From contig JAGWJY010000010.1 in NCBI GenBank assembly GCA_028865545.1, positions 1 through 64,000 of the forward strand: 64,000 bases of DNA, given 5' to 3'. The notes beneath the pieces were generated by a model, which was not told the origin of the DNA, searched no databases, and saw only the letters and a list, made by a program, of their open reading frames with translations. The stretch's first letter is position 1, and each line of letters begins with the position of its first letter. This DNA is from Alphaproteobacteria bacterium (GTDB lineage Bacteria; Pseudomonadota; Alphaproteobacteria; Micropepsales; Micropepsaceae). Shown piece by piece: positions 11,803 through 44,265 of this stretch. The position numbers and the translations under genes are program-made.

Positions 11803-11900
11803 GACGGGCCTATATAGGCCGTGACTTCCTCCGTCACCAGTGCTGGGTTGACCTTTTGGCGGCGTTTCCGGTCAAACTTCGCGCTTTTGGGGAGGTCCGG

Positions 11901-13985
11901 ATGCGCCGTTTCACCCTGCTGTTGCTGGGACTGCTCATTGCCACCGCCGCGACCGCGGCCGATATGGGAAAGATCGTGGACGATCCTTATCTTTGGCTGG
12001 AAGACATTCACGGCGCCAAGCCGATGGAATGGGTACATGAGCAAAACGCCCGTTCTGTGGCCGCGCTCAAGGCCGACCCTAGCTATCAGAAGAATTACGA
12101 TTCCATTCTCAGCGTACTGGACGCGACCGACCGTATTCCATATGGCAGTCTCAACCATCAATACGTCTTCAATTTCTGGCAGGACGCGGAGCATCCCAAA
12201 GGCGTGTGGCGGCGCACGACCATCGCCGATTACGCTAACGCTAATCCACATTGGGAGATTTTGCTCGACCTCGACAAGCTCGCCGCCGAGGAAAAGGAAA
12301 ACTGGGTATGGAAGGGCGCGGATTGCACGCCCACGCTTACCCGCTGTCTGGTGAATCTCTCGCGTGGCGGCGGCGATGCGGTCGTGGTGCGGGAGTTCGA
12401 TCTGGCGGGCAAGAACTTCGCGAAGGACGGTTTTACGCTGACCGAAGCAAAATCGGATGTCGCGTTTCTCGACGACAATACCGTGTTCTTCGGCACGGAT
12501 TTCGGAGCGGGTTCGCTGACGACCTCAGGTTATCCGCGCATCGTCAAGCTTTGGCATCGCGGCGGGGCGATCTCGGACGCCAAGACCGTGATGGAAGGCA
12601 AGGTGACAGACGTCGCGATCGCCGCCCAGATTCTGCGCGATGGTGACAAAAGCGTGCCCATCATCGTGCGGGCGCCGAGCTTCTTCGAATCCGAATATTA
12701 TTTGGTTGGTACAGATGGTGGTTGGTGGAAACTACCCGTGCCGCTCTCCGCTCAGCTTCAAGGCCTTCACGATGGACAATTGCTGTTCACGCTGCGAGAG
12801 GACTGGTCGCCGAACGGCAAGCACATCGGCAAGGGATCCTTGATCGCTTTCGCGCTCAAGGACGCCACAGCCGACAAGTTGCCGCCCGTCGACGTGCTGT
12901 ACGCGCTCGGACGCCGCTCGTCCATCGAGAGTGTGGCCACCGGCCGTGATGCCGTTTATGTTTCGATCTACGATAATGTCGTGGGTGCTATCCACGCCTT
13001 CCGGTATGCGGATGGCAAGTGGACAGACAAGAAACTCGACCTGCCGCCGGGCGGCTCGACGAGCATCATTTCGGCCAACGATAGCGGTCCGGAAGCTTAT
13101 TTCGGTTTCGAAAGCTTCCTCAAACCGCCTACGCTCTATGCCGACGGCGGCGACGACCGGCCGGTTGAGATCAAATCGCTGCCGGCGCGCTTCGACGCTT
13201 CGGGGCTCGAGACTACACAATACGAAGCAACCGCCAAGGACGGCACGAAAGTGCCTTATTTCGTGGTCCGTGCGAAAAGCGCCAAGGGGCCGCGGCCGAC
13301 GATACTATATGGCTATGGCGGTTTCGAGATTTCCCTCACGCCGTCCTATTCGGCGAACATGGGCATGCTGTGGCTGACCAAGGGCGGTACCTATGTGCTT
13401 GCCAACATCCGTGGCGGCGGCGAGTTCGGACCCGCTTGGCACGAAGCGGCGCTGAAATACCATCGCCAGCGCGCCTTTGACGATTTCGCCGCGGTGGCGG
13501 CCGATATTGAGAAGCGCGGTATCACCACGCCTGCGCAACTCGGTATCATGGGCGGCTCAAACGGTGGGCTTCTGGTTTCCACGGTGATGACCCAGCATCC
13601 TGAATTGCTCGGCGCCGTCGTCTGCCAGGTACCGCTGATTGACATGATCCGCTACACCCATATCGGGGCAGGCGCCTCGTGGATCGCAGAATATGGTGAT
13701 CCCGCCGATCCCAGGATGGCGGCTTATATCCGTACCTATTCCCCGTATCAGAATGTCAGCGTGAAGAAGAAATATCCACCGGTGTTCTTCGTCACCGCCA
13801 CCAGTGACGATCGCGTCACGCCGGTGCATGCGCGCAAGATGGCGGCGAAGATGGAGGCGCAGGGCCACAGTGTGATGTTTTACGAGAACACTGACGGCGG
13901 CCATGCAGCCGCGGCCAACCATAAGCAGGCGGCCGAGATGTGGGCGCTGAGTTTCGTCTATCTGGCGCGTGAACTTGAGTTGTAA
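11901..13985 (+). CDS. Secreted prolyl oligopeptidase family serine peptidase (S9), copy 1
   Basis: 694 residues with a signal peptide (MRRFTLLLLGLLIATAATAA). An N-terminal DDPYLWLEDIHG segment and a seven-bladed propeller region precede the alpha/beta-hydrolase domain. The nucleophile elbow GGSNGG carries Ser553, and the triad is completed by Asp in TSDDRVTP and His in DGGHAAAAN. The family cleaves after Pro or other residues in short peptides; the signal peptide places it in the periplasm. The ATG has GGGGAGG 5 nt upstream. A close paralogue follows directly, sharing long identical stretches, which suggests tandem duplication. Confidence 0.9.
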   Translation: MRRFTLLLLGLLIATAATAADMGKIVDDPYLWLEDIHGAKPMEWVHEQNARSVAALKADPSYQKNYDSILSVLDATDRIPYGSLNHQYVFNFWQDAEHPKGVWRRTTIADYANANPHWEILLDLDKLAAEEKENWVWKGADCTPTLTRCLVNLSRGGGDAVVVREFDLAGKNFAKDGFTLTEAKSDVAFLDDNTVFFGTDFGAGSLTTSGYPRIVKLWHRGGAISDAKTVMEGKVTDVAIAAQILRDGDKSVPIIVRAPSFFESEYYLVGTDGGWWKLPVPLSAQLQGLHDGQLLFTLREDWSPNGKHIGKGSLIAFALKDATADKLPPVDVLYALGRRSSIESVATGRDAVYVSIYDNVVGAIHAFRYADGKWTDKKLDLPPGGSTSIISANDSGPEAYFGFESFLKPPTLYADGGDDRPVEIKSLPARFDASGLETTQYEATAKDGTKVPYFVVRAKSAKGPRPTILYGYGGFEISLTPSYSANMGMLWLTKGGTYVLANIRGGGEFGPAWHEAALKYHRQRAFDDFAAVAADIEKRGITTPAQLGIMGGSNGGLLVSTVMTQHPELLGAVVCQVPLIDMIRYTHIGAGASWIAEYGDPADPRMAAYIRTYSPYQNVSVKKKYPPVFFVTATSDDRVTPVHARKMAAKMEAQGHSVMFYENTDGGHAAAANHKQAAEMWALSFVYLARELEL

Positions 13986-14071
13986 ATCTCTCGTGATGTG
14001 TCCGCTTCACGGCTTGACCCGCGGGCTTCGGGTCGCCCACAAAACGTGGCCGATAGAAGTAGGAGGCGCGA

Positions 14072-16180
14072 TTGCGTAAACTCGTGGTGGCCGTCGCGTT
14101 GGCGGCATGCGCGTGGCAGGCGGCGAATGCCGCGCCGGCCGACAACGATCCCTATCTGTGGTTGTCGGACATCCACGGCGCCAAGGCACTCGACTGGGTG
14201 AAACAGCAGAACGCCAAGAGTGACGCGGCTCTCAAGAGTGATCCGATCTATATCAAGGACCGCACCGCCATTCTCTCTGTGCTGAATGCCAACGATCGCA
14301 TTCCGGAGGGCACGCTTGATCATCAATGGGTGTTCAATTTTTGGCAGGACGCGGGACATGTGCGCGGCGTCTGGCGGCGCACCACCATCGCCGATTACGC
14401 GAGCAAGAATCCGCATTGGCAGGTGCTGCTGGACGTCGACAAGCTCGATAAGGATACGCACAAGGATTGGGTGTGGAAGGGCGCGGACTGCACGCCGAGC
14501 TTCGATCGTTGCCTGGTCAGCCTTTCGCCGGGTGGCGGTGATGCGGTAGCAATCCGTGAATTCGACCCCAAGACGGGCAAGTTCTTGGACGACGGTTTCG
14601 CGCTGTCGGTAGCCAAGTCGACAGCCCGTTATATCGACGACAATACGGTTCTGTTCGCCACCGATTTCGGACCCGGGACGATGACGCCGTCATCCTATCC
14701 GCGCATCGTCAAGCTGTGGCATCGCGGCACGCCGCTCTCCGCGGCAAAGACAGTGTTCACCGGCCAGCCGAATGACATGTCGGCCGGCCCGCAAGTTTTT
14801 CATGGACCATACGGAACGGTCGCGCTGATCGTGCGCCGCCCCAGCTTCTTCAAGGCCGACTATTTCTACGTACGTTCCGACGGTACGACACTGAAACTGC
14901 CCCTGCCGGAAGACGCCCAATTGCACGGTGTTACGGATGGTTTGCTGATCGCAACCCTGCAGAGTGCCTGGACACCGCCGAGCGGCAAGCCGATCCCGCA
15001 AGGTGCATTGATCGCTTTTCGGGTCCTGGATTTCACGCGCACCGGTAAAATCCCACCAGTTTCGGTGCTCTACGCACCCGGTCCGCATTCAATGATTGAT
15101 GAGGTGACACCCGGCGAGCATGTGGTCTTTGCCTCGATCTATAACGACGTCAAAGGCTCTGTCCACGCATTCCGCTTTTCTGACTTCAAATGGAGCGACA
15201 CCGAACTCGCTCTGCCAAAAGATGGCTCAACGCGCATCGTTTCGGCCAACGATTGGGGGCCGGAAGCTTATTTCACCTACCAAAGCTTCCTCGTGCCGCC
15301 GACTCTTTACGCATATGACGGCCGTTCGGTGCCGCAATCGATCAAGGAACAGCCGGTCCGCTTCGATGCCAGTGGCATTACCGTCGACCAGTATTGGGTG
15401 ACGTCGAAAGACGGCACCAAGGTGCCCTATTTCCTGATCCGCCCGAAAGGCGCGAAGGGCGCGGTTCCCACGATCCTCTACAGTTATGGCGGCTTCCAGC
15501 TGTCGTTGACTCCTTGGTATTGGAACGACGGGCATATGCCGCTCGACACCGGGCAAACATGGCTTATGAAAGGCGGCGCCATTGCGGTCGCCAATATCCG
15601 TGGTGGTGGCGAATTCGGCCCTGCCTGGCATCTGGCGGCGCTGAAATATCATCGTCAGCGCGCCTATGACGACTTCGAGGCCGTGGCGTCCGACATCGAA
15701 CATCGCGGACTGTCCACACCCAAACAACTCGGCATCGTTGGGGCATCAAACGGCGGCTTGCTCGTTACCACCGTGATGACGGAGCGGCCGGATCTGTTCG
15801 CCGCCGTGGTCTGCCAGCGGCCTTTGATCGACATGCTGCGCTATACGCGCTTCGGTGCTGGCGCCTCCTGGATCGGTGAATATGGCGATCCTGCCGATCC
15901 GAAGATGGCGGCCTATATCCGCACCTATTCGCCCTACCAGAACGTCAAGGCAAACGTCACCTATCCGCCAATCCTCTTCATCACCGAGACAAGCGATGAT
16001 CGCGTCACGCCTGTATTCGCGCGTATGATGGCGGCGAAGATGGAGGCGCAGGGCCACGACGTGTTGTTCAACGAGGCGGCAGAAGGCGGCCACGGACCGG
16101 GTTCGACGCACGCGGAAGAAGCAGACTATTGGGCGATGTCCTTCGCCTTTTTGTCGCGACATCTCGGACTGGGGAAGTAG
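14072..16180 (+). CDS. Secreted prolyl oligopeptidase family serine peptidase (S9), copy 2
   Basis: 702 residues, paralogue of the preceding gene. It has a signal peptide (MRKLVVAVALAACAWQAANA), DNDPYLWLSDIHGAKALDWV, a propeller and a catalytic domain with GASNGG (Ser559), TSDDRVTPV and EGGHGPGS. The start is TTG, supported by a full AGGAGG five bases upstream. Differences from copy 1 cluster in the propeller and near the catalytic His (GGHGPG against GGHAAA), which may give a different substrate range. It is likely cotranscribed with copy 1 (86-nt gap). Confidence 0.9.
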   Translation: MRKLVVAVALAACAWQAANAAPADNDPYLWLSDIHGAKALDWVKQQNAKSDAALKSDPIYIKDRTAILSVLNANDRIPEGTLDHQWVFNFWQDAGHVRGVWRRTTIADYASKNPHWQVLLDVDKLDKDTHKDWVWKGADCTPSFDRCLVSLSPGGGDAVAIREFDPKTGKFLDDGFALSVAKSTARYIDDNTVLFATDFGPGTMTPSSYPRIVKLWHRGTPLSAAKTVFTGQPNDMSAGPQVFHGPYGTVALIVRRPSFFKADYFYVRSDGTTLKLPLPEDAQLHGVTDGLLIATLQSAWTPPSGKPIPQGALIAFRVLDFTRTGKIPPVSVLYAPGPHSMIDEVTPGEHVVFASIYNDVKGSVHAFRFSDFKWSDTELALPKDGSTRIVSANDWGPEAYFTYQSFLVPPTLYAYDGRSVPQSIKEQPVRFDASGITVDQYWVTSKDGTKVPYFLIRPKGAKGAVPTILYSYGGFQLSLTPWYWNDGHMPLDTGQTWLMKGGAIAVANIRGGGEFGPAWHLAALKYHRQRAYDDFEAVASDIEHRGLSTPKQLGIVGASNGGLLVTTVMTERPDLFAAVVCQRPLIDMLRYTRFGAGASWIGEYGDPADPKMAAYIRTYSPYQNVKANVTYPPILFITETSDDRVTPVFARMMAAKMEAQGHDVLFNEAAEGGHGPGSTHAEEADYWAMSFAFLSRHLGLGK

Positions 16181-23927: not shown

Positions 23928-25115
23928 TCAATGCCGCGTCGCGTGTCGGGAACTCTGCTTTTCCAGTTTCGACCAGTAATGCCGGTTTGCCCGGACGCGT
24001 GCTTTGTGCATCTTGCAGATGAACGTGGCACGCTCGTAAATTGTCGAATCCTCCGACATGTCGTAATTGCAGCCGCTGCACCATGAGCAACCGCTGGCGA
24101 CGTCGCACGACAGGCATTCCTCCGGGCTTTGCGACCGGCGTGTCATGGCGAGGAAAGGACGCAGCCTGTTCTTGTCGATCCCGTCGAAGCAATTGCCGAT
24201 CGCTCGACCCAACTGGTGTGTTAGTGAATAGGGCGCGAAACGGACGCAGGGATAGAAAATCCCGTCGCCATCCACCGCCAGCATCTTGCCCGCGCCGCAC
24301 CAATTCCTGTCGTCCTCTGGACTGAGAGATTGGCCGATGTTCCGGCTGAACAGGGAACAGGAATGGCTGTCGGCGAGACCGTGGTCGATGACGTAGTCGG
24401 CCAACTCGACCAGCTGCTTTTCAAACAGGGTATCGTCGCCGGGTTGCCAGACATCCTCATTCACGACGTTCATATTGACGGTTTTGATGCCTAGCTTGAA
24501 CAGGTGGACGACGCTTTCCTTGATGTAGGGAATGTCGTCGTGCGAAATTGTTGCCTTGGTCGCCGCGCCGGGGAACTGTTCCAGCCAGAGCGGGATGTTC
24601 TTGACCACAGCCTCGTAAGAACCTTTGCCGTTGGGAAAGACGCGCTGCGTATCGTGCTTACGCTTCGTACCGTCGATGCTGATGCCGATGCTCAAGTGCT
24701 GTCGGTTCTTGGCGATATAGCGCTGCACCTTGCTCTTGCCGTAAAGCAGGCCGTTGGTGGAGAAGCTGAAGCGGTATCGGTCGAACCACGGATGGCCGGT
24801 TTCGTACATTCGCAGCTTTGCATAATCGGAAATGCGATCGATAAGATCGATTTCCAGGAAGGGCTCGCCGCCGATGAAATCCCAGATGACGGCGCTTTCG
24901 TCGAATTGTTCGCGTTCGCGCAGCAGATAGTCGATCGTCGCCCTGGCGACGTCGAAGCTCATCTTCTTGTTCTTGTTCTTGTCGGCCAGGTAGCAGTACT
25001 TGCAGCGCAGCTGGCAGTCCTCGGTAACGATAAACGTCACCGTCTTGGCACGCCCTTCCTGCCAAGAGGGACGGCGGCGACCCAGTAGGGGTTCCCGAAG
25101 CGTTGTTTCCACCAT
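23928..25115 (-). CDS. Radical SAM/SPASM peptide maturase, CXXX-repeat target type
   Basis: 395 residues. The radical SAM triad is Cys34, Cys38 and Cys41 (CQLRCKYCY, CX3CX2C), with GGEP at 82-85 for SAM binding. A SPASM-type C-terminal region carries Cys273, Cys290, Cys334, Cys337, Cys343, Cys346, Cys349 and Cys367, ligands for one or two auxiliary Fe-S clusters, as in peptide-modifying enzymes that make thioether cross-links. It is the last gene of a six-gene operon, 45 nt after the third Cys-repeat precursor. The reaction (probably thioether or other side-chain links to the repeat cysteines) is inferred from family and context. Confidence that it is a peptide maturase is high; the exact chemistry is unknown. 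Confidence 0.9.
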   Translation of the reverse strand: MVETTLREPLLGRRRPSWQEGRAKTVTFIVTEDCQLRCKYCYLADKNKNKKMSFDVARATIDYLLREREQFDESAVIWDFIGGEPFLEIDLIDRISDYAKLRMYETGHPWFDRYRFSFSTNGLLYGKSKVQRYIAKNRQHLSIGISIDGTKRKHDTQRVFPNGKGSYEAVVKNIPLWLEQFPGAATKATISHDDIPYIKESVVHLFKLGIKTVNMNVVNEDVWQPGDDTLFEKQLVELADYVIDHGLADSHSCSLFSRNIGQSLSPEDDRNWCGAGKMLAVDGDGIFYPCVRFAPYSLTHQLGRAIGNCFDGIDKNRLRPFLAMTRRSQSPEECLSCDVASGCSWCSGCNYDMSEDSTIYERATFICKMHKARVRANRHYWSKLEKQSSRHATRH

Positions 25116-25160
25116 CTGACCTCGCGGTGTTTCCGTTGCTGGCCGCTTCAGGAGCGACCG

Positions 25161-25541
25161 TCAGTATTTGCTGTCGTTCGTACAGGCGTTCATACAGGTG
25201 CCTTCGCAACTGCCTTGGCAGTTTCCCTCGCAGCCCATCATGCAGCTGTCTTTGCATTGGCCGGAACAAGCGCCTTCGCAGTCGTTCAGGCAGTGGGCTG
25301 TGCAGCTGTTCAGGCAGCCATTTTCACAGCCGGTGGAGCAATCGGAGGCGCAGCTGGCGGTGCAATTCCCTGAGCAGTCGCCGGTACAGCTGCCCTCGCA
25401 ATCGCCGCCGCAATCGGCGCGCGCCTGCAGAGGTACGGTCAATCCGAGACCCATCACCGCAAGAGAGGGAATGACTATCGTGCCGGATTTCAGAAAACCA
25501 CGCCGGTTTAGGTTCTTAGTGGGTTGAGATCGTATATTCAT
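25161..25541 (-). CDS. CXXX-repeat precursor peptide 3 (20 Cys, Tat-like leader)
   Basis: 126 residues. Residues 1-42 form a leader: NRRGFLK with twin Arg at 13-14, a hydrophobic stretch (IVIPSLAVMGLGLTV) and an AxA site (ARA, 40-42). From Asp43 onward the chain has 20 cysteines at residues 44 to 120, every fourth residue without a single exception. The three residues between them are mostly Gly, Ser, Asp, Glu, Asn and Thr. It is the longest of three tandem paralogues and lies directly before the radical SAM gene. ACGGAGAA precedes the ATG. The predicted role is substrate of the maturase, exported by Tat; its activity is unknown. Confidence 0.88.
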   Translation of the reverse strand: MNIRSQPTKNLNRRGFLKSGTIVIPSLAVMGLGLTVPLQARADCGGDCEGSCTGDCSGNCTASCASDCSTGCENGCLNSCTAHCLNDCEGACSGQCKDSCMMGCEGNCQGSCEGTCMNACTNDSKY

Positions 25542-25582
25542 TTTATGTTCTCCGTTCTGCAGAAACGGCTTTGAAGCAAAAA

Positions 25583-25888
25583 CTATCTGCTCGTCTGCTT
25601 GCAGGTATCCTGGCAACTGCCTTCGCAGGAGTTGTTGCAGATGGCGTAGCAGGTGTTGGCGCACCCATCGGCACAACTGCCGCCACAGTCGCTGCCGCAC
25701 TGTGCGGTGCAACTGCCTGTGCAGGCGCCCTGACATCCACCTTCACATAGAGAGTCGCAATCGGCACGTGCCGGCAACGGCGCGGCCAGCGTGAGTCCCA
25801 AGATGGCTATAACGGGAATGATCTTGCCCCCTGCCATGAGAACGCCGCGCCGGTTCACGCTCTTTCCAGGGTTCGATCTTTTCGCCAT
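25583..25888 (-). CDS. CXXX-repeat precursor peptide 2 (14 Cys)
   Basis: 101 residues. The leader has twin Arg at 13-14 in the weaker context NRRGVLM, a hydrophobic core (IIPVIAILGLTLAAPL) and ARA at 40-42. It is followed by 14 cysteines at residues 44 to 96, exactly every fourth position, then KQTSR. GGAGGAA lies 8 nt before the chosen ATG; an upstream in-frame Met (MGEERS) lacks such a site. It sits between the other two precursors with 30-41 nt gaps. The odd triplets YAI and DSL show that hydrophobic residues are tolerated between cysteines. Confidence 0.87.
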   Translation of the reverse strand: MAKRSNPGKSVNRRGVLMAGGKIIPVIAILGLTLAAPLPARADCDSLCEGGCQGACTGSCTAQCGSDCGGSCADGCANTCYAICNNSCEGSCQDTCKQTSR

Positions 25889-25918
25889 TGAACGTTCCTC
25901 CCCCAAGGAATGCCTTCG

Positions 25919-26182
25919 CTAGCTCGCCTTGCTGCTGCCCGTGCAGGTGTTGTCGCATCCACCGCAGCTGCCCTTGCAGTCGCCCATGCAATCGCCCTTG
26001 CAGCTCTCGACGCAGCTGTCGGCGCATTCGGCTTTGCAGGAGCCGAAGCAGTCGGCACGTGCGGGCTGCGACATCGCGGTCATCGCAAGCCCCATCACGG
26101 CCAGTGAGGGAATGACCTTGGCCCCTGATTTGAGAAAGCCGCGGCGGTCCATCTTCTTTCCTGGTTCCAGCTTCTTCGTCAT
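25919..26182 (-). CDS. CXXX-repeat precursor peptide 1 (10 Cys)
   Basis: 87 residues, the shortest paralogue. The leader has DRRGFLK (twin Arg 13-14), VIPSLAVMGLAMTAM and ARA at 41-43. The cysteines are at 45, 49, 53, 57, 61, 65, 69, 73, then 76 and 80, so the four-residue step is broken once (SCGGC). The tail is TGSSKAS. AAGGAA precedes the ATG. It is the first precursor in the operon, 36 nt after the small modification-system gene, and so may be the most highly expressed. Confidence 0.87.
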   Translation of the reverse strand: MTKKLEPGKKMDRRGFLKSGAKVIPSLAVMGLAMTAMSQPARADCFGSCKAECADSCVESCKGDCMGDCKGSCGGCDNTCTGSSKAS

Positions 26183-26218
26183 GACAGAGTTCCTTTCCCT
26201 GTAAGGTCAAATCTGATT

Positions 26219-26599
26219 TCACTCGCTCTTGCCCTGCCTGTTCAAACTGATCTGGCAGGTGTCGAAGTCGATCGACCATTGCCACCCGGGCTTCCCCTGC
26301 CAGCCATACGCCTTGGCCTTGTCGTCCCACCATTTTTGGAATCTGCTTTTCGTTCGCCCCAGATCGGCAATCACCTTTTCGTAGAAAACCTCGTTGTCGA
26401 GCAGGCCGCTACCGTTCTGTGACAGGGACTGGATCAGTTCGAGCAGGCCATTCCGGCGCTCGAACAGCGTCTGGATCTCGTCCTTTTCCCGCGGGCTGAC
26501 CTTGCCCACCACGATCGCCTGCATGCCGGCATTCTGCCCTGTACCCTGACGCCTCACCGGGCTCTTCACATCTTTTCTCTTCTTGACCTGCTTGAGCAT
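26219..26599 (-). CDS. CXXX-repeat peptide modification system protein
   Basis: 126 residues: a basic N-terminus (MLKQVKKRKDVKSPVRR), then KVSPREKDEIQTLFERRNGLLELI, a mid helix and the diagnostic end DLGRTKSRFQKWWDDKAKAYGW ... WSIDFDTCQISL. This matches my recollection of the small protein that always accompanies CXXX-repeat maturases. It has no recognised catalytic motif and may be the leader-binding or scaffold component (inference). The start was chosen at the ATG preceded by TGTGAGG; the upstream gene's stop lies 8 nt away, so translation is probably coupled. Confidence 0.82.
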   Translation of the reverse strand: MLKQVKKRKDVKSPVRRQGTGQNAGMQAIVVGKVSPREKDEIQTLFERRNGLLELIQSLSQNGSGLLDNEVFYEKVIADLGRTKSRFQKWWDDKAKAYGWQGKPGWQWSIDFDTCQISLNRQGKSE

Positions 26600-26607
26600 C
26601 GGCATCC

Positions 26608-27738
26608 TCACAACATTGGATCGGTGGAGGGATCGGTCGCCCGCAACTGAACACCTAGCGGTGGAGCATCGATACACTCCAACGGGTCGCGATAGTTCAG
26701 CTCGGTTATGCGGGGCATCCTTCGGAACGGTTCGGTGGAACCGAGATCGATCAGCATTTGCCGCGATGCCTCACGTTCGAGATGCGCGACGGCGCATTGC
26801 TGTTCGGACGGGACATTTAGCTCCAGTGTCGTTTTCTTGTTCAGGAAGATGCAACGTTTGCAATGGAACGCGTCGCAGCGCGTGCACAGCGGCGCACGGA
26901 CAAACTGGGCGGCGGCTAGGCGTCTGACGACAAGACCCTTCTTGTCGTCAAACGCGCCGACAGAGCTTCTCTCGTCGTCGTAATAGAAAGCCGGACAGAG
27001 ATAGCACTTGCCGTCCGGCGCAATGGTCAGATGATCCACGCCCGCGCCACAATTGCGCATCGCGCTCAGCATCATCCTGTCGGTTAGGACATTAACCTCG
27101 ACCGGGTAACCGTCGCGATAGAAGGGAACGAGCGCCGCGCGCATCTTGCGCAATTCTTTCTCGTACGAGACGAAATCGCTCGACGTGAAATCTTCGACGT
27201 CGACAAGATGGATGCTCAGCCGTCTGAATTTGCCGAACAGGGCCTCGACGAGGCCGCTGCACTTTTTGAGCGACCGTTTGCCCAGGCGCAGGATGAGGTT
27301 GCGGTCCAGGTTGTTGGTCAGTTCCGCGAAGGAAATGCTGTCCTTGGCATCAAGTACCACGACGGCGTCCGGATACCGCCCGTGAAGCTCCCACGGCACG
27401 ATCTTGGCGTGGTCGACGGTGTCGATCAGGTGTTGGAGCTTTGGCGGAGGCGCTGTCTTTCCTAGCAGGAAGGTCAGGGCGATCTTGTCCTTCCGCGCTC
27501 GGCGGATAATCCCCGCCAGTAGCCCTGGGGCCATCCAACGAGGTTCCGCGGCTGCATGGAAATGCGGATTTTCGTAATGGCAGAAAGGAACGGCGCCGTC
27601 TTCTAGGATCACCAATGCGTGTTCATTTGGCGTGACCACGTCTTGCCCCGTGCGGCTGACGCGGGCTTCCGCCCCCGTCATTCGTGCCGACACCGGCGCG
27701 ACATCCGCAAACCCCTGCTGCCACGCGAACCCAAGCAC
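26608..27738 (-). CDS. SPASM-like CXXX-repeat peptide maturase partner lacking a radical SAM triad
   Basis: 376 residues from a GTG start (an ATG 57 nt further in is an alternative). The N-terminal two thirds contain no CX3CX2C motif. The C-terminal part has a SPASM-like cysteine set: Cys230, Cys245, Cys248, Cys285, Cys288, Cys293, Cys296 and Cys315, in NCGAGVDHLTIAPDGKCYLCP and CTRCDAFHCKRC. Fe-S binding without SAM chemistry is suggested, for example an electron-transfer or substrate-holding partner of the true radical SAM enzyme. It is the first gene of the operon. I recall a family called CXXX repeat peptide maturase with this pattern. Confidence 0.8.
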   Translation of the reverse strand: MLGFAWQQGFADVAPVSARMTGAEARVSRTGQDVVTPNEHALVILEDGAVPFCHYENPHFHAAAEPRWMAPGLLAGIIRRARKDKIALTFLLGKTAPPPKLQHLIDTVDHAKIVPWELHGRYPDAVVVLDAKDSISFAELTNNLDRNLILRLGKRSLKKCSGLVEALFGKFRRLSIHLVDVEDFTSSDFVSYEKELRKMRAALVPFYRDGYPVEVNVLTDRMMLSAMRNCGAGVDHLTIAPDGKCYLCPAFYYDDERSSVGAFDDKKGLVVRRLAAAQFVRAPLCTRCDAFHCKRCIFLNKKTTLELNVPSEQQCAVAHLEREASRQMLIDLGSTEPFRRMPRITELNYRDPLECIDAPPLGVQLRATDPSTDPML

Positions 27739-28118: not shown

Positions 28119-29951
28119 GTGGACCGCCATATCGTCCCAGACGAAGTTTTGACTCTGCCCGAGCCACTGGCCGAGGCGGTCGTCGGCGCGCGCGTGCCGG
28201 AAAGGCCTTTCGCCTTCATATGGTACCTGGTGAAGACGCATTTCGCGCGCCGCGTCTTGCTGCTGGTGACCATTTCGCTCTTCGCGGCGACGGTCGACGC
28301 TTTCGCGCCGCTCGGCTTCTCACATCTGGTAAACGGCGTGCTGAAGGCGCGCTCTCTGCATCTGGCCTTCGCCACGGTGCTGCCCTGGGTGGGAGTGATC
28401 GCTGGGCTCTGGCTTGGTGCCGGATTGGCCTATCGCGGCTATGAGGCGATGGACATCGGCACCAGCCCGCGTATGCGCGCCCTGGCACAGAAGTACCTCT
28501 TCTCCTATATGCTGGGCCATTCACCCCGATATTTTCAGGATAACTTCGCCGGCAAACTCGGACAAAAGATTAAGCAGGCCGGACAGGCGACTCTCACCAT
28601 CCTACAGATCATCTGTTTCGAGATGGTGCGGGTGACGGGCTCGGTGATGATGGGCGCGGTGCTGATGTTCTTGGCGCAACCGCTCTATGCCTTGATTCTT
28701 GGCGTTTGGACGACACTGTACCTCACCATCGTAATCGCGCTGGCCAAGCGTTGCGTGCGCTTGTCGAAATCCTTCTCCGACGAGGTGTCGACGTCCACCG
28801 GGCGGTTGGTGGACGCGATCTCCAATGCCGACCTGATCCGCGCCTTCGCCAAGGCGGCCTATGAGCGCCGCTTTCTCTCGCATTTTCTTGCTGACGAGAT
28901 GAATGCATCGCGCCGGCTGCGCACTTTCCTCGTCGCCATGCGCGCCTTCATGCATCTGGCGACTACGGTGTTTATGCTGACGCTGGTGCTGGTGACGGCG
29001 CATGACTGGTATGCCGGTGCGACCACGGCGGGCACGTTCGTAATGGTCTACCTGCTGGGTAATCAGATCGCCCGTGGGGTGCAGGAACTGTCCTTCAGGA
29101 TGCTCGACTATTTCGAGCAGGTAGGTACATTGACCGAGGCGTTGGAGCTGGTCAGCCAGCAGCACGAGATCGTCGATGCCGCACATGCCAAGCCGCTGAT
29201 TGTGAGCAAGGGGGCCATCCGCTTTGAGCATATCCGTTTTGCCCATCTCGACAGCAAGGCGGTGTTCGAGGACCTCAATCTCGACATCAAGGCAGGTGAG
29301 AAGGTTGGACTGGTCGGGCCGTCCGGTGCCGGCAAGTCGACGCTGGTAAAGCTGCTGCGCCGGCAATACGAGCCGCAGGCTGGCGCGATTTACGTTGACG
29401 ACCAGAATATCGCTGACATCAGTTGGGACTCCCTCAACGAGGCCATCGCCGAAGTGCCGCAGTCGCCCGGTGTCTTCCATCGGGCCATTCGCGACAACAT
29501 CCGCTATGCCCGTGCGGACGCACCGGAAAGCGAAGTCGTACGTGCGGCCAATGACGCCCACGCCCATGACTTCATCCTGTCGCGCGAAGAGGGCTATGGC
29601 ACCATCGTCGGCGAGCAGGGCATCAAGCTGTCGGGAGGCGAGCGTCAGAGGGTCGCCATCGCCCGCGCTCTCGTGAAGGATGCAAAAATACTGGTGTTGG
29701 ATGAGGCGACTTCGTCGCTGGATTCCGAATCCGAGCACATGATCCAGGAAGCGCTGTGGACGCTCATGCAGGGGCGCACGGTGATCGCCATCGCCCACCG
29801 GCTTTCGACCATCGCCGGTATGGATCGCATTGTCTATCTGGAGAAGGGGCGGATCATTGAGGACGGCCCGCACAAGGAGCTGCTAGCCAAAGGCGGCGCC
29901 TATGCGCGCCTGTGGAATCGCCAGATGGGCGGCTTCATTGATGCCGGGTGA
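28119..29951 (+). CDS. ABC transporter, fused permease-ATPase (MsbA-like exporter)
   Basis: 610 residues. Six membrane helices lie in the first 330 residues, followed by the ATPase domain: Walker A GPSGAGKST, signature LSGGERQR, Walker B ILVLDEATSSLD and the switch His in IAIAHRLSTI. It is a half-transporter of the type I exporter fold and forms homodimers. No C39 peptidase domain precedes it, so it is not a classical leader-cleaving peptide exporter. The start is GTG with a poor ribosome binding site. Its divergence from the CXXX-repeat operon could mean a shared role, but lipid or drug export is equally possible. Confidence 0.88.
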   Translation: MDRHIVPDEVLTLPEPLAEAVVGARVPERPFAFIWYLVKTHFARRVLLLVTISLFAATVDAFAPLGFSHLVNGVLKARSLHLAFATVLPWVGVIAGLWLGAGLAYRGYEAMDIGTSPRMRALAQKYLFSYMLGHSPRYFQDNFAGKLGQKIKQAGQATLTILQIICFEMVRVTGSVMMGAVLMFLAQPLYALILGVWTTLYLTIVIALAKRCVRLSKSFSDEVSTSTGRLVDAISNADLIRAFAKAAYERRFLSHFLADEMNASRRLRTFLVAMRAFMHLATTVFMLTLVLVTAHDWYAGATTAGTFVMVYLLGNQIARGVQELSFRMLDYFEQVGTLTEALELVSQQHEIVDAAHAKPLIVSKGAIRFEHIRFAHLDSKAVFEDLNLDIKAGEKVGLVGPSGAGKSTLVKLLRRQYEPQAGAIYVDDQNIADISWDSLNEAIAEVPQSPGVFHRAIRDNIRYARADAPESEVVRAANDAHAHDFILSREEGYGTIVGEQGIKLSGGERQRVAIARALVKDAKILVLDEATSSLDSESEHMIQEALWTLMQGRTVIAIAHRLSTIAGMDRIVYLEKGRIIEDGPHKELLAKGGAYARLWNRQMGGFIDAG

Positions 29952-33967: not shown

Positions 33968-34531
33968 TCACCAGCGGTAATTCACGTTTGCATAGATACC
34001 GTCCGGCGTCGCCGACAAGTCGCTCGAAAAACCGTTGTGCGGGCGATAGCGCGTCGTAAACAGTTCATTGTAACCGAACGAGATCGCCGCGCTGGTGGCG
34101 ACATCCCACCAGTGATGTTTCTGGGCGTCGACACGGGACCAGCCGACGAACGTCGCTGCGGCATAAGCCGGGAGGCCGTACTCCCAGCCGTAACGCTGCC
34201 ATAGGAATTGTGCGGGGGCGAAAGCCAGCGCGCTGGTGTCGGACGGGAACGAATCCCAGTTCGAGCTGCTGTGAGAACACGGCGTCGCGAAGGGCCGGCA
34301 CTCGCGCACGAAATGCTTCAAACCATAGACCGTGCCCACGGTCAGAAAGGTAGTGGTAACGACCTGCGCCGTACCCGTCAGATCGTCCTTCCACAGCGTG
34401 ATGCTGCCGGCGACCAGTGGAAGCGCTATGGCCGTAGCGGTGCCCAAGGTCTCCGTGCTGGTGGACGCTTGTGCCGGCACCGCGGTGCAAAGCAGGCCGG
34501 CGACCACGATGGCGGAAATTCTGTTCTTCAC
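33968..34531 (-). CDS. PAP2-family protein, copy A (motif 2 His lost)
   Basis: 187 residues with a signal peptide. PAP2 motif 1 is Lys72-x6-Arg79-Pro80 (KHFVRECRP). Motif 3 is intact as Ser132-Arg133-x5-His139-x3-Asp143 (SRVDAQKHHWWD). Motif 2 should read PSGH but reads FPSDTSAL, so the catalytic-site His is replaced by Thr. Lipid or acid phosphatase activity is therefore doubtful. It ends in NVNYRW, shared with copy B, and abuts the convergent MFS gene without a gap. Confidence 0.82.
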   Translation of the reverse strand: MKNRISAIVVAGLLCTAVPAQASTSTETLGTATAIALPLVAGSITLWKDDLTGTAQVVTTTFLTVGTVYGLKHFVRECRPFATPCSHSSSNWDSFPSDTSALAFAPAQFLWQRYGWEYGLPAYAAATFVGWSRVDAQKHHWWDVATSAAISFGYNELFTTRYRPHNGFSSDLSATPDGIYANVNYRW

Positions 34532-34639
34532 GGCGCCCTCAATGAGACTTTCGCGACCCTACATAGCATAGGCTCTGGAGGCAATTAAACGCGTGCCGGG
34601 AACCGGCGCAGCCTAGGACTATACAAATCGTCAATCCGT

Positions 34640-35197
34640 CTACCAGCGATAATTGGCGCTGACGAAGACGCCGTCCGGGCTGGCCTGCAGATCCGAATAG
34701 AATCCGTAGGGTTTGTGATATCGGGTGGTGATCAGCTCGTTGTAGCCCCAGGAAATCACGGTGCTGGCCAGTCCGTCCCAGATGCGATTCTTCCGCGCCT
34801 TGTCCAAAGAATATGGAACGTATTTGGAGACGATGAATGTCGGCAGTCCCCACTCCCAGCCATAACGGCTCCAGAGAAATGACGACGGTGCTGCAGCCAA
34901 TGCGGACGTCGTTGACGGGAAGGAATCCCAGCCGGTGCTGTGATCAAGCGGATTCTGGTAGGGGCGCCGTTCGCGCACGAGCTGCTTGAGGCCATACGCT
35001 GTACCCACCGAGAGCGCCGTCACGACTGTCAGCTGCGCCAGCCCCGTCCAGTCGCGCTTCCACACTGTGACGCCCACCGCAAAGGCCGGCACGGCATAGG
35101 AGACGATCTTGCCGCTTTCGGCCGATTGGGCGTTGGCTGACGACGTAAAGGAAAGAACGAGCGCAAGCAGACATACTGACAGCGTGCTTTTGCTCAT
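34640..35197 (-). CDS. PAP2-family protein, copy B (degenerate active site)
   Basis: 185 residues, paralogue of the downstream copy. Motif 1 is Lys71-x6-Arg78-Pro79. Motif 2 is FPSTTSAL instead of PSGH. Motif 3 reads SLDKARKNRIWD: Arg becomes Leu131 and the nucleophilic His becomes Asn137. With motif 2 and motif 3 both broken, catalysis is very unlikely and a structural or binding role is more plausible. A signal peptide ends near SSANAQ. The C-terminus SANYRW matches copy A. Confidence 0.82.
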   Translation of the reverse strand: MSKSTLSVCLLALVLSFTSSANAQSAESGKIVSYAVPAFAVGVTVWKRDWTGLAQLTVVTALSVGTAYGLKQLVRERRPYQNPLDHSTGWDSFPSTTSALAAAPSSFLWSRYGWEWGLPTFIVSKYVPYSLDKARKNRIWDGLASTVISWGYNELITTRYHKPYGFYSDLQASPDGVFVSANYRW

Positions 35198-38947: not shown

Positions 38948-40033
38948 TCAGGCGGCCGCCAGGCTCTTGCCCTTGGAACCCAGGTCCGCGATGGCTTCTT
39001 CCAGCCGCGCCACGACGCCGAGCTCGCCCACACGCAGCCATTTGCGCGGGTCATAAGTCGACTTGTAAGGCTTCGCGTTGTCGGGATCGACCTGGTATTT
39101 GAAGGCCCGCGGGTTGGCCTCCATGTTGCCTGCAATGGCGTGGGCGAAGGCGAACTGCATGTCGGTGTCGATGTTCATTTTGAATACGCCGTAGCTCACC
39201 GCTTCCTGGATCAGATGTGTCGCCGTACCGGAGCCGCCGTGGAACACCAGGCTGAGCGGCTTGTCGCCGCCGCCGCGCACTTCGGAGATCAGCTTCTGCG
39301 AGTTCTTCAGAATTTCCGGGCGCAACTTCACATTGCCGGGCGCATAAACGCCATGCACGTTGCCGAAGGAGGCCGCGACCGTGAAATGGCCGATGTCGTT
39401 CAGACGGTCATAGGCGGCAAGGACATCTTTGGGCTGCGTGTACAGATGCGCGTTGTCCGCATCGGCGTCGCCTTCTTTGAGTTCGTGGCCGATGCCGTCC
39501 TCTTCGCCGCCGGTGACGCCGAGTTCGATCTCCAGACTCATGCCAAGCGGTGCCAGGCGCTTCAGCACGCGGGCGCATTCGTCGAGGTTCTGCTCCAGCG
39601 GCTCGCTCGACAGATCGAGCATGTGCGAGGAGAACAGCGGCTTGCCGGTCTTCTTGAAATGCTCCTCGCTCTTTTCGATGAGGCCTTCGACCCACGGCAC
39701 CAGCTTACGGTTGGCGTGGTCGGTGTGCATAATGACGCAGACGCCATATTCCGCCGCCAGTAGGTGCACGTGCTGCGCCGCCGAGGTGGCGCCGAGCACG
39801 CGGGCACGATGCGCATCGGGGGCGCCTTCTCCGGCATAGAACCGCGCGCCGCCGTTCGACAGCTGGATGATAACGTCCGACTTGGCCTTTGCCGCAGTTT
39901 CCAGAACCGCGTTCAGGCTGTTGGTCCCGACGATGTTCACGGCCGGCAGTGCATAGCCGCCCTCTTTGCAGGCCGCCAGGAGCGTCAAATATTCTTCGCC
40001 GGTCACGACGCCGGGGCGCAATTTCTTGGTCAT
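38948..40033 (-). CDS. fbaA: Fructose-bisphosphate aldolase, class II
   Basis: 361 residues. Zn-dependent cleavage of fructose-1,6-bisphosphate. Visible motifs are [17 protein letters not shown] (metal/active site), [27 protein letters not shown] and FHGGSGT, and [15 protein letters not shown]. The full-length E. coli FbaA type is about this size. GAGGACGAG precedes the ATG. A class I aldolase lies in the same block, so the organism has both mechanisms. Confidence 0.95.
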
Positions 40034-40143
40034 CTCGTCCTCATCTGCCGAATTGCGACATCGCTTACACTGCCCCCTTTTCCCCGTCAAAAGGTCATAA
40101 GGTTGCGGATGGATCGCCTTTGGCTGGAAGCGGATGAGAAGGC

Positions 40144-40764
40144 CTAAAATAGCGCGTTGAAAGCCTTTACAGCCACCTCTGGGCCGCCCGGATGGTCCCA
40201 GACGCCTGCAGAGACCGCCAGGAAATCCGCCCCTGCCTCGACCAGCGGTTTGGCGTTGTCGATCCTGATCCCGCCGATGGCCACACAGGGGACAACCATC
40301 AAGTCTGACCACCATGTGAGAAGATCGAGGCCTGCCTGCGTTTTCGCCGCTTTGGTCTGGGTCGGGAAAAAAGCACCGAAGGCGACATAGTCCGCGCCAG
40401 CCTCGCCGGCCTCGATCGCCAGATGGCGGGAGTCGTGACAGGTGACGCCCACGATGCGGTCCGGCCCCAGGACGGCCCGTGCCTCGGCGTAAGAGGCGTC
40501 CTCTTGGCCGACATGTACGCCGTCGCAGCCCAGCCGCTTGGCCAGGTCCGGCCGGTCGTTGACGATGAAGGCGACGTCCGCCTTCTGTGCAATGGGCATC
40601 AGGATTTCCGTCGCCTGGACGATCTCTTCGTCGGGCACATCCTTCAGCCGCAATTGCAGCGAAGCGACGTCACCGGCGGCGAGTGTGCGCTTCAAGATTT
40701 CCGCGAAGTCGTGCAGCTCGAACTTCGGCGGCGTGATCAGGTATAGGCGACAGCGTTCGGTCAT
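40144..40764 (-). CDS. thiE: Thiamine phosphate synthase
   Basis: 206 residues, TIM barrel. [73 protein letters not shown] and [29 protein letters not shown] are the ThiE strand-loop motifs that bind the pyrimidine and thiazole phosphates. It sits between the two aldolases, 110 bp upstream of fbaA. Coupling to glycolysis is positional only. Confidence 0.92.
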
Positions 40765-40849
40765 GATGTGCTCTGGGCCTCACCCTTCGACAAGCTCGGG
40801 GCGACGGAATCCATAAACCCTCATGCTGCGCTTGTCGAAGCATGAGGGT
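40765..40849. repeat. Intergenic palindromic repeat (CTTGTCGAAG type)
   Basis: ACCCTCATGCT (40817-40827) and AGCATGAGGGT (40839-40849) are perfect arms around GCGCTTGTCGA. A second motif CCCTTCGACAAGCTCGGGGCGACGG lies just before it. Elements with this core are scattered between genes in many alphaproteobacterial genomes. It may also terminate the class I aldolase transcript. Confidence 0.65.
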
Positions 40850-40855
40850 GCGAAT

Positions 40856-41773
40856 TCAATTTTTGTAAATCTCGATCACCTTGTCGAGCAGCGCCAGGGC
40901 GCTCGTCTTGTCGCGCTGGAAGGAATTGCGGCCCATGATCGAGCCGTTGCCGCCTCCGGCTTTAATGGCGCGGGCCTCTTCGAGGATTTCCTCCTCGCCC
41001 TTCTTGCCGCCGCCGGAGAAGATCACGATGCGCCGTCCGCCGAGCGCCGCCTTCTTGATATGCGCCACGCGGTCGGCGAGGGTGTCAAGCTTGACGTTGG
41101 CCTTTCGGTAGAGCTCCGCAATGTCCTTGGCGTCGACGAAACCCGTCGGCAGCTTCACCTTGATGATATGCGCACCAAGCAGCGCTGCAATCTGGGTCGC
41201 ATAGGCATCGACGTCGATGGCCGTCTCGGCTTCCTTGCTGAGATCTTCGCCGCGCGGATACGACCAGATCACGGTCGGCAGGCCGACGTCCTTCGCCTGG
41301 GCGACGAATTCGCGCGCCGTCTCGAACATGTCGTAGGACTTGAGCGAGCCAGGATAGATCGTCAGTCCCACCGCCGTGCAACCCAACCGCAGCGCGTCTT
41401 TCACCGACGCGGTGACAGCCTGCGTCTTCGGTCCTTCCTTGGGGTAGAGCAGGTTGGCGCTGTTGACCTTGAGGATCAGCGGCAGCCGTCCGGCAAAGGT
41501 CGCGGCGCCGGCTTCGAGCATGCCGAGCGGCGACGCGAAAGCCGACAACCCCGCGTCGATCGCCAGCTGGAAATGATAATGCGGATCGTAGGCTGGCGGA
41601 TTGGGGACGAAGCAACGATCGGGGCCGTGCTCATACCCTTGGTCTACCGGCAGGATGACAAGCTTGCCGGTGCCGCCCAGACGCCCGTGATAGAGCATGC
41701 GGGCCAGATTGGTCTTCACACCGGGATTGTCGCCTTCGTACCAGCTAAGGATTTCCTGGACGGCATCCGTCAT
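40856..41773 (-). CDS. fbaB: Fructose-bisphosphate aldolase, class I (DhnA type)
   Basis: 305 residues, Schiff-base aldolase. LVILPVDQGYEHGPDRCF, LILKVNSANLLYP, TAVGLTIYPGS, VIWSYPRGEDLSKE, HIIKVKLPTGF (the Lys of IKVK is the expected Schiff-base residue) and IFSGGGKKGEEEIL (phosphate loop) are present. AGGAGAGACTGT precedes the ATG; further upstream in-frame residues are not conserved-looking. It is likely separately transcribed from pgk, which ends 133 bp upstream. Confidence 0.93.
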   Translation of the reverse strand: MTDAVQEILSWYEGDNPGVKTNLARMLYHGRLGGTGKLVILPVDQGYEHGPDRCFVPNPPAYDPHYHFQLAIDAGLSAFASPLGMLEAGAATFAGRLPLILKVNSANLLYPKEGPKTQAVTASVKDALRLGCTAVGLTIYPGSLKSYDMFETAREFVAQAKDVGLPTVIWSYPRGEDLSKEAETAIDVDAYATQIAALLGAHIIKVKLPTGFVDAKDIAELYRKANVKLDTLADRVAHIKKAALGGRRIVIFSGGGKKGEEEILEEARAIKAGGGNGSIMGRNSFQRDKTSALALLDKVIEIYKN

Positions 41774-41906
41774 ACAGTCTCTCCTGTTGCTTGAGCGCTC
41801 ATTGTCCATAAACACCAAGGGCGGCCTTGCGCCGCCCATCCAGTCTTTGGATGGCCGGGGCGGGCCCGGCCATGGTGACTCGTTTTAGAGCGGGGCTCTA
41901 GCCCGT

Positions 41907-43103
41907 CTATTTTACCATCAACGCTTCGACGCCGGGCAGTTCGAGGCCTTCCAGCCATTCGAGGAAGGCGCCGCCCGCCGTCGAGACGTAGGAAAAGTCG
42001 TCGGCCACACCGGCACGATTGAGAGCGGAAACCGTGTCGCCGCCGCCGGCGACGGACAGCAGCTGATCGGCTTTGGTCCGTTCGGCAACGAGCCGCGCTG
42101 CAGCGACCGTGCCCTTGTCGAACGGCACCGTCTCGAAAGCGCCCAGCGGACCGTTCCACACCACCGTACGGGTGTTGTGCAGGAACTTGCCGAACTCCTC
42201 CACCGTGGCCGGACCGACGTCGAGAATCATCTCGTCCGCCGCGACCTTGTCGACGGCGACCGTACGATGCGGAGCGTTGGCCCTGAACTCTTTCGCCACC
42301 ACCGCGTCGGTCGGCAGCAGCAGCGCCGTGCCGTGCTCGACCGAGAGCGCAATCACTTTGCGCGCGGTCTCCATATGGTCGGGCTCGTAAAGCGATTTGC
42401 CGACAGACTTGCCTTCGGCGGCCAGGAAGGTGTTGGCCATGGCGCCGCCGATCACCAGCGTTTCCACGCGCTTCACCAGATTTTCCAGCAGCGCGATCTT
42501 GCTCGACACCTTGGCGCCGCCGACCACCGCCATCAGCGGACGTTCGGGATCGTTCAGCGCCTTTTGCAGATGCGTCAGCTCGGCTTCCATCGAACGTCCT
42601 GCCGCGCTGGGCAGCAGATGCGCCACCGCTTCGGTAGAGGCATGCGCGCGATGGGCGCTGGAAAACGCGTCGTTGACATAGATGTCCGCCAGCTTGGCAA
42701 GCTTCTTGGCGAATTCGAAGTCGTTCTTTTCTTCCTCGGCGTGAAAGCGCGTGTTCTCGAGCAGAAGCACGTCGCCATTCTTCAGCTTGGCGACGGCCTC
42801 TTCGGCGACCGGACCGATGCAGTCGGCGGCGAAGGCGACCGGACGGCCCACCTTGTCCGCCAGCGGCTTTGCCACCGGCCCCAGCGACATGGAGGGCACG
42901 ACCTTGCCTTTCGGCCGATCGAAATGCGAGCAGACGATGACGCGCGCACCCATTTTCGCGAGTTCGCTGATGGTCGGGGCTTGGCGATCGATGCGCGAGG
43001 TGTCGGTGACGACACCGTCTTTCATCGGCACGTTGAGGTCGGCGCGTACGAGGACGCGTTTGCCGGCTACGTCGAGATCGTCAAGAGTGCGGAAGGTGGT
43101 CAT
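41907..43103 (-). CDS. pgk: Phosphoglycerate kinase
   Basis: 398 residues. N-terminal substrate site [49 protein letters not shown]-terminal ATP site [23 protein letters not shown] and WNGPLGAFE ... [13 protein letters not shown]. It makes ATP from 1,3-bisphosphoglycerate. It follows gap by 111 bp with a strong stem-loop between them. Confidence 0.97.
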
Positions 43104-43173
43104 GGAGCGTGTCCTATGTTCCCACCCTCCCTTTGAGGGCGGGTCGACTTCTATGAGAGCAGACGAAATCGAG

Positions 43174-43205
43174 CGATAGGCGCCGCCGGTCGGCGGCGCC
43201 TATCG
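43174..43205 (-). terminator. Perfect 14-bp stem between gap and pgk
   Basis: CGATAGGCGCCGCC and GGCGGCGCCTATCG are exact complements around a 4-nt loop, 10 nt after the gap stop codon. No T-run follows. It could be a rho-independent-like terminator, an RNA processing or stabilising element, or an attenuator that lowers pgk relative to gap. Confidence 0.6.
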
Positions 43206-43214
43206 TCGAAATCA

Positions 43215-44225: not shown

Positions 44226-44253
44226 ACGTGCCTCCTATAAAATCCTTTGAATT

Positions 44254-44265
44254 GTCAGCGCTGAC
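44254..44265. promoter_or_regulatory. Palindrome GTCAGCGCTGAC upstream of gap
   Basis: A perfect 12-bp palindrome in the 54-bp gap between tkt and gap, about 30 bp before the gap start. Its symmetry and CG centre recall sites for LacI-type sugar-responsive regulators, but no regulator is identified. Confidence 0.45.

What the first reader, a model, noticed from the sequence alone, without database searches (positions are those of the whole stretch)
23928..27738. Complete CXXX-repeat RiPP operon (six genes) in an alphaproteobacterium
Seen: a radical SAM/SPASM enzyme (CX3CX2C at 34-41 and eight C-terminal Cys), three tandem precursors whose cysteines recur every fourth residue, a small accessory protein and a SPASM-like partner, all on one strand with 8-45 nt gaps. 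Established: radical SAM/SPASM enzymes install thioether or C-C links in Cys-rich precursors (ranthipeptide-like families), and the accessory and partner proteins match families I recall as bound to CXXX-repeat cassettes. Inference: this is an intact natural-product or peptide-cofactor pathway. I know of no characterised product of such a cassette, so it is the strongest candidate for a new system in the window.
Basis: partly seen in the sequence, partly recalled or inferred. Interest (0 to 1): 0.92.

Follow-up and report, generated by a model that had tools for sequence, protein, structure and literature searches.

The report
Tat-exported cysteine-repeat peptide cassette
A bacterium carries a small gene set for three peptides with a cysteine at about every fourth position, which a radical enzyme pair probably modifies and which, judging by their leaders and by related gene sets, are probably shipped out already folded through the Tat protein gate.

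Summary
The six genes at 23928-27738 are real and intact. Enzyme, partner and accessory exceed the NCBIfam CXXX-repeat cut-offs, precursors in 2 of 3: a member of a named family set for which two paper searches found nothing. All three precursors start with a twin-arginine (Tat) type signal ending ARA-D. A strict Tat-like motif is in 98 of 118 precursor ORFs (2 of 3 here) and 0 of 740 other ORFs. In 44 of 80 relatives, 43 named Bacteroidota, tatA and tatC follow the accessory gene; their TatC separate from other TatC of such genomes (two rows dropped, support 92/64). The host has its own tatC. Against: Tat profiles score below cut-off, and three cassettes adjoin ABC transporters instead. The partner has a radical-SAM fold without the SAM-cluster motif, keeps seven SPASM cysteines, and is fused to the enzyme in two distant bacteria. 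Asp/Glu is too rare in most cores for general PapB-type links, though commoner in these three. Chemistry, accessory role and function are untested.

The parts
26608..27738 (-). Partner: radical-SAM/SPASM fold without the SAM-cluster motif (TIGR04119, CXXX repeat peptide maturase); true start perhaps ATG at 27681
26219..26605 (-). Small accessory protein (TIGR04116), predicted beta-alpha-alpha-beta-beta; possible leader-binding protein (inference)
25919..26182 (-). Precursor 1, 87 aa, Tat-type leader ending ARA-D, 10 Cys
26129..26149 (-). Twin-arginine motif DRRGFLK of precursor 1
25583..25888 (-). Precursor 2, 101 aa, Tat-type leader ending ARA-D, 14 Cys every fourth residue
25835..25855 (-). 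Twin-arginine motif NRRGVLM of precursor 2 (fits the loose, not the strict pattern)
25161..25541 (-). Precursor 3, 126 aa, Tat-type leader ending ARA-D, 20 Cys every fourth residue
25488..25508 (-). Twin-arginine motif NRRGFLK of precursor 3
23928..25115 (-). Radical SAM/SPASM peptide maturase (TIGR04115)

Best explanation
A CXXX-repeat RiPP cassette whose product is made in the cytoplasm and exported folded by Tat. The radical SAM enzyme works in a complex with a pseudo-radical-SAM partner (probably two auxiliary iron-sulphur clusters, no SAM cluster) on the cysteine ladder of each precursor. The leader serves twice: as recognition site for the maturation proteins and as a Tat signal. The accessory protein most likely binds or guards the leader until the core is finished. 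The compact, modified peptide then goes through Tat (the host's own system here; a dedicated TatA-TatC in many Bacteroidota cassettes) and the leader is cut at ARA-D, leaving a cysteine-ladder peptide in the periplasm (in some relatives as a lipoprotein), acting in the envelope. Shown here: gene content, motifs, gene order, predicted partner fold, TatC branch. Following from family knowledge: radical modification in the cytoplasm. Pure inference: thioether chemistry, accessory role, cleavage, function.
For: Family hits over cut-off for enzyme, partner and accessory. With 90-residue windows on both sides, strict motif [STND]RRx[FL][FLIM][KRNQE] in 98 of 118 precursor ORFs and a looser one in 109 of 118 (a further one, L075, beyond the window), against 0 and 55 of 740 other ORFs of the same loci. 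Order rSAM-partner-acc-tatA-tatC in 44 of 80 relatives; of the 67 with the accessory and at least 1150 bases after it, 41 have tatC. Taking the first ATG of the tatA frame, it overlaps the accessory's stop in 19 of 45 and lies within 13 nt in 17 more. TatA and TatC of L013 exceed NCBIfam cut-offs (63.6 vs 53.9; 166.7 vs 132.7 bits). Cassette TatC (44 rows) form one side of a branch against 17 other TatC of cassette genomes, in 94% of 200 bootstrap trees. Host genome has tatC with tatA- and tatB-like frames beside it. Partner: CteB 5wgg Z 22.1, rmsd 3.1, 283 residues; no CX3CX2C in 78 of 78 separate partners nor in the window's own; Cys 230, 248, 285, 288, 293, 296, 315 and 53 invariant in 53 rows; fused to the enzyme in L062 and on the Anaerococcus plasmid. 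In some Bacteroidota the frame just before the precursor encodes an envelope-type protein.
Against: Tat profile models stay below cut-off: TIGR01409 reported for 2 of 3 window precursors (11.2, 12.1 bits; cut-off 16.7) and 2 of 10 relatives (12.9, 15.7); PF10518 for 2 of 3 and 2 of 10 (12.0-12.8; cut-off 22.7). Precursor 2 fails the strict motif. TatC alone is common: 125 of 148 Bacteroidales drawn have it over cut-off, so 47 of 49 cassette genomes is no strong excess. Two cassette genomes (L058, L059, MAGs) gave no TatC although their leaders carry RR. 26 of 67 long enough loci have no tatC in the cassette, among them all four alphaproteobacterial relatives L002-L005. The TatC branch has support 92/64, below the tool's mark of 95/80, and needed two rows dropped; with them the label changed four times. 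L028, L029 and the Anaerococcus cassette sit by ABC transporters; the precursors found in L028 and Anaerococcus have no Tat leader. No modification or export was observed.
Confidence: 0.73

Rival explanations
1. The RR motif is only a recognition motif for the maturase, and the peptides leave by the neighbouring ABC transporter (28119-29951) or stay inside.
For: The ABC gene lies next door; in L028, L029 and on the Anaerococcus plasmid an ABC transporter follows the cassette. Tat profile scores are below cut-off.
Against: The ABC gene is on the other strand; in 6 of 12 congeners tested it was found near rplS without the cassette, gap under 0.75 kb in 4 and 2.2 kb in 2, so it belongs to the host site. 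tatA-tatC goes with the cassette in 44 of 80 relatives. By my rule 42 leaders have AxA and 35 a lipobox, of 109 with RR.
Confidence: 0.12
2. PapB-type ranthipeptide: Cys sulphur is linked to the beta or gamma carbon of Asp/Glu.
For: Second best NCBIfam hit of the enzyme is PapB, 199.2 bits (cut-off 340). PapB accepts Cys-Xn-Asp with n 0-6 (PMC9413430, abstract and passages). The window's own cores have Asp+Glu per Cys of 0.60, 0.43 and 0.55, above the family median.
Against: Asp+Glu per Cys: median 0.21, below 0.5 in 101 of 116 cores, zero in 13; at i+4 stands Cys. No X position has a conserved acidic residue (8-10% each in 1634 units).
Confidence: 0.14
3. The peptides are periplasmic metal-binding ladders (bufferin- or metallothionein-like); the enzyme pair alters some cysteines, and Tat is used because metal is loaded inside.
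For: Cys about every fourth residue; Tat carries folded or cofactor-loaded proteins (recalled); bufferins are signal-peptide-bearing Cys RiPPs that chelate copper (PMC12452194, abstract start and passages).
Against: By eye no metal gene among the clusters printed for four or more loci, which does not exclude one; no binding data.
Confidence: 0.27
4. The cassette is a decaying, unexpressed import in this genome.
For: Patchy: 3 of 96 genomes of the order, all in one genus.
Against: Six intact frames with family-invariant residues; an 83% identical relative in the same genus.
Confidence: 0.05

Closest known systems
NCBIfam CXXX-repeat cassette (TIGR04115, 04116, 04117/04114, 04119)
   Same: All these protein families present and contiguous, over cut-off except one precursor at 48.4 of 50 bits for TIGR04117
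   Different: Tat leader and, in relatives, a dedicated TatA-TatC are added by this work as far as I could see; precursors lie between accessory and enzyme here, before the enzyme in the Bacteroidota loci
PapB/freyrasin ranthipeptides
   Same: Homologous SPASM enzyme, Cys-X3 spacing
   Different: No CX3D/E pattern; partner and accessory present; 199.2 bits of cut-off 340
SCIFF maturase CteB
   Same: Nearest solved structure for enzyme (by sequence) and partner (by fold)
   Different: Different precursor; extra pseudo-enzyme; TIGR03974 113.2 of 425 bits
Bufferins and other MNIO RiPPs with Sec signal peptides
   Same: RiPP precursor whose leader is a signal peptide; a partner protein is proposed to mask it (PMC12452194 passages)
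   Different: Different enzyme (MNIO), Sec instead of Tat
Tat substrates with maturation chaperones (such as TorD, NapD; recalled, not searched)
   Same: Cytoplasmic maturation before folded export
   Different: Substrate is a ribosomal peptide ladder; the accessory has no PDB fold match under E 0.001

Membership tests
NCBIfam CXXX-repeat cassette | Radical SAM maturase TIGR04115 over cut-off | tested here: met
   606.1 bits, cut-off 350
NCBIfam CXXX-repeat cassette | Partner TIGR04119 over cut-off | tested here: met
   213.7 bits, cut-off 150
NCBIfam CXXX-repeat cassette | Accessory TIGR04116 over cut-off | tested here: met
   87.5 bits, cut-off 50
NCBIfam CXXX-repeat cassette | Precursors TIGR04117 over cut-off | tested here: met
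   2 of 3 over 50 bits (62.6, 60.7); the third 48.4. The repeat model TIGR04114 is over its 20 bits in 1 of 3 (31.4; others 15.7, 19.7)
PapB ranthipeptides | NF047865 over cut-off | tested here: not met
   199.2 of 340 bits
PapB ranthipeptides | Cys-X3-Asp/Glu motifs | tested here: not met
   Cys at i+4; D/E per Cys median 0.21 in 116 cores, 0.43-0.60 in the window's three
SCIFF | TIGR03974 over cut-off | tested here: not met
   113.2 of 425 bits
Sactipeptides | S to alpha-carbon thioether | not testable with these tools
   needs MS/MS
Tat substrates | Twin-arginine motif, hydrophobic stretch, AxA cleavage site | tested here: met
   (N/D)RRG(F/V)L and ARA-D in 3 of 3; strict motif in 2 of 3
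Tat substrates | Tat profile TIGR01409/PF10518 over cut-off | tested here: not met
   at most 12.1 of 16.7 and 12.6 of 22.7 bits in the window precursors
Tat substrates | Tat-dependent export | not testable with these tools
   bench test needed
RRE-containing RiPP systems | PqqD-like RRE domain in accessory | tested here: inconclusive
   no Pfam hit over cut-off; model beta-alpha-alpha-beta-beta, no PDB match under E 0.001

The most novel reading that the evidence does not exclude
A class of ribosomal peptides that is cross-linked in the cytoplasm and exported folded by Tat, with its own dedicated TatA-TatC in Bacteroidota; cysteine is the one invariant residue of a nearly proline-free ladder, built by a radical SAM enzyme plus a pseudo-radical-SAM partner, with the accessory acting as a Tat proofreading chaperone.
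Probability: 0.38. Interest if true: 0.82.

Novelty: new variant of a known kind. Interest (0 to 1): 0.63.

Why it matters
If right, it suggests how a RiPP with a signal peptide avoids leaving before it is modified, a question raised for Sec-dependent bufferins (PMC12452194, passages): use the route that passes folded cargo. It places an uncharacterised family set in the cell envelope, predicts what a fair assay must contain (enzyme plus partner, leader intact), and offers small Tat systems with a predicted dedicated cargo.

Tried and rejected
ABC gene at 28119 as part of the system: rejected, host site. PapB chemistry as general: rejected on residue counts, left open for part of the Cys here. 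Tat by genome-wide TatC presence alone: weak, kept only with adjacency. TatC copy number: two or more matches in 23 of 49 cassette genomes and 10 of 148 drawn Bacteroidales; not used as proof, since the 49 mix phyla, some matches are pieces of one gene and 4 of the 148 carry the cassette. Accessory as RRE: no support, not excluded. Shared neighbour genes: the 13- and 11-locus clusters are mostly shadow frames of tatC and rSAM; the 8-, 7- and 4-locus clusters are real envelope-type genes (see full report). Cassette on plasmids: one record at E 1e-60. Papers: searches returned none; one returned one, 9, 28, 69, 70 and 81 returned 12, 187, 59, 3 and 9, of which I saw listings of at most 15 each, and none listed looked to be on these models or on Tat export of RiPPs. 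Passages by term were read in PMC10352776, PMC8326336, PMC12452194, PMC9413430, PMC10434189 and PMC11002830. The library is open-licence only; Haft and Basu 2011 is not held. NCBIfam's family pages could not be read and may mention Tat.

Full report
Observation. Six minus-strand genes at 23928-27738 are present as described, with small corrections of start sites and cysteine counts. Cysteine spacing exceeds each of 20,000 shuffles for each precursor.

Families. Enzyme, partner and accessory exceed the curated cut-offs of TIGR04115, TIGR04119 and TIGR04116; precursors hit TIGR04117 at 48.4, 62.6 and 60.7 bits, cut-off 50. The host genome has one TIGR04115 match. One scan of GTDB genomes confirmed 160 stretches encoding a relative of the enzyme; the best 80 were kept, 57-83% identical, mostly named Bacteroidota, with alphaproteobacteria and other phyla.

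Leaders. In 81 loci (80 relatives plus own) 118 CXXX ORFs were collected; 109 carry a loose and 98 a strict twin-arginine motif within 90 residues before the core, against 55 and 0 of 740 other plus-strand ORFs. Of the nine without: L049 and L063 run off the contig end; L075 has RR further upstream; L014 6960 has a distorted RR; L014 3518, L017 6231, L018 69 and L078 6630 have leaders of under 25 residues in frame; L028 starts within the core in the frame taken, and its ATG form has no RR. Of the 109, 35 show a lipobox, 42 AxA, 32 neither by my rule. The three window leaders read (N/D)RRG(F/V)L...ARA-D-C; precursor 2 misses the strict pattern. Profile models for Tat signals stay under their cut-offs.

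Tat genes. tatC lies in 44 and tatA in 45 of 80 relatives: order rSAM-partner-acc-tatA-tatC in 44, and one with tatA only. 43 of the 44 records are named Bacteroidota, one Pseudoflavonifractor. Of 67 loci with the accessory and at least 1150 bases following, 41 have tatC and 26 do not; 7 are too short and 6 lack the accessory. None of the four alphaproteobacterial relatives has it. Genome-wide, 47 of 49 cassette genomes tested (of 80) have TatC; a Bacteroidales draw gave 125 of 148 over cut-off. The two without are L058 and L059. In a draw of 295, 7 genomes carry the enzyme over cut-off. A first TatC tree (42 cassette, 21 elsewhere) needed 4 label changes, shuffled mean 17.8; two 'elsewhere' TatC inside the cassette group proved to lie in second cassettes. 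With these relabelled and two long rows dropped, 44 cassette and 17 other TatC separate with one change in 94% of 200 bootstrap trees, branch support 92/64, under the tool's mark. The host here has TatC with TatA- and TatB-like frames beside it (by eye).

Enzyme pair. Complete partners hit the enzyme profile at about 100-222 bits, truncated ones at 60-68, over profile positions 151-366 of 368 in the 12 shown. The AlphaFold model (pLDDT 83.5) aligns to CteB over residues 34-333, Z 22.1, rmsd 3.1, 283 residues. CX3CX2C is in none of 78 separate partners, while Cys 230, 248, 285, 288, 293, 296, 315 and 53 are invariant in 53 rows. Hence a pseudo-enzyme that probably still binds two auxiliary clusters (inference). 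Enzyme and partner are one protein in L062 and on Anaerococcus prevotii plasmid pAPRE01, which argues for a complex.

Accessory. Model beta-alpha-alpha-beta-beta, pLDDT 87.3, no PDB match under E 0.001. It is found in 74 of 80 relatives. Of the six without, L010, L040, L051 and L077 are on contigs that end at or in the partner or enzyme frame; L028 and L029 lack it genome-wide, as does L010's genome, where short contigs are not held. L028 and L029 carry an ABC transporter right behind the partner; L028's only CXXX ORF has no RR, and in L029 none was found. The Anaerococcus cassette has only a 41-residue ORF that resembles the accessory's start (by eye), an RR-less 56-residue precursor and an ABC transporter. 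A link of accessory with Tat leader is thus a hint only.

Chemistry. In 1634 CXXX units only Cys is invariant; proline is 0.1% at each X position, Asp+Glu 8-10%, Gly 40% at X2. Asp+Glu per Cys has a median of 0.21 and is zero in 13 of 116 cores, so PapB-type links (PMC9413430, passages) cannot be general; in the window's three cores it is 0.60, 0.43 and 0.55, so they are possible there for part of the Cys. Other options: alpha-carbon links to small residues, Cys-Cys chemistry, or links at a subset of Cys.

Envelope neighbours. In 8 Bacteroidota loci (L017, L020, L031, L045, L047, L055, L069, L079) a family of about 180-200 residues with a signal-peptide-like start (by eye) ends within about 10 bases of a precursor frame; no Pfam hit in the 3 tested. 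In 4 loci (L070, L073, L075, L077) the frame before a precursor encodes a protein with a bacterial SH3 domain (3 of 3 tested), in L070 with sub-threshold outer-membrane barrel hits. A lipoprotein-like family lies directly before or after the precursor in 5 of 7 loci that have it (L030, L046, L061, L063, L072). This fits an envelope role; the window has no such gene inside the cassette.

Site. Of 12 congeners tested, all have rplS and 6 the ABC gene at E 1e-100; rplS and ABC lie about 0.1, 0.15, 0.3 and 0.7 kb apart in four and 2.2 kb in two, against 4.2 kb here with the cassette between. In the order 3 of 96 genomes carry the partner. The cassette is thus patchy and probably acquired.

Verdict. 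A member of a named cassette on which the searches made here found no paper, with a well supported inferred property, Tat export. Chemistry and function are open.

Noticed in passing
L116 44-9920 (Anaerococcus prevotii pAPRE01): A plasmid typed as conjugative carries a fused enzyme-partner, a short RR-less CXXX precursor, a 41-residue ORF resembling the start of the accessory, an ABC transporter, and class III lanthipeptide genes next door.
   Followed up: partly
L028 8001-12093, L029 1883-5959: Cassettes without accessory genome-wide, with an MsbA-like ABC transporter straight behind the partner.
   Followed up: partly
L020 6934-7515, L079 6908-7471 and six more loci: A secreted-looking protein family of unknown kind directly before the precursor gene in 8 Bacteroidota loci.
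   Followed up: partly
L070 5620-6840, L073 6391-7284, L075 6233-7288, L077 1594-2538: SH3-domain envelope-type protein directly before a precursor gene.
   Followed up: partly
L034 6337-13564: Expanded locus: five precursors, two accessory genes, two tatA, one tatC and a partial second partner.
   Followed up: no
L103, L104: Second CXXX cassettes with tatA-tatC in genomes that already hold one.
   Followed up: yes
L058, L059: Cassette genomes named Pseudobutyrivibrio and Lachnospiraceae without any TatC found; MAG mixing or loss not decided.
   Followed up: no
window 11856-16180: Two tandem, similar genes that look like prolyl oligopeptidases (by eye, no search).
   Followed up: no
window 33968-35197 and 62054-63995: Tandem pairs that look like PAP2-type phosphatases and aldo/keto reductases (by eye, no search).
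   Followed up: no
window 38948-46307: Two unlike fructose-bisphosphate aldolase-type genes near phosphoglycerate kinase, GAPDH and transketolase (by eye, no search).
   Followed up: no
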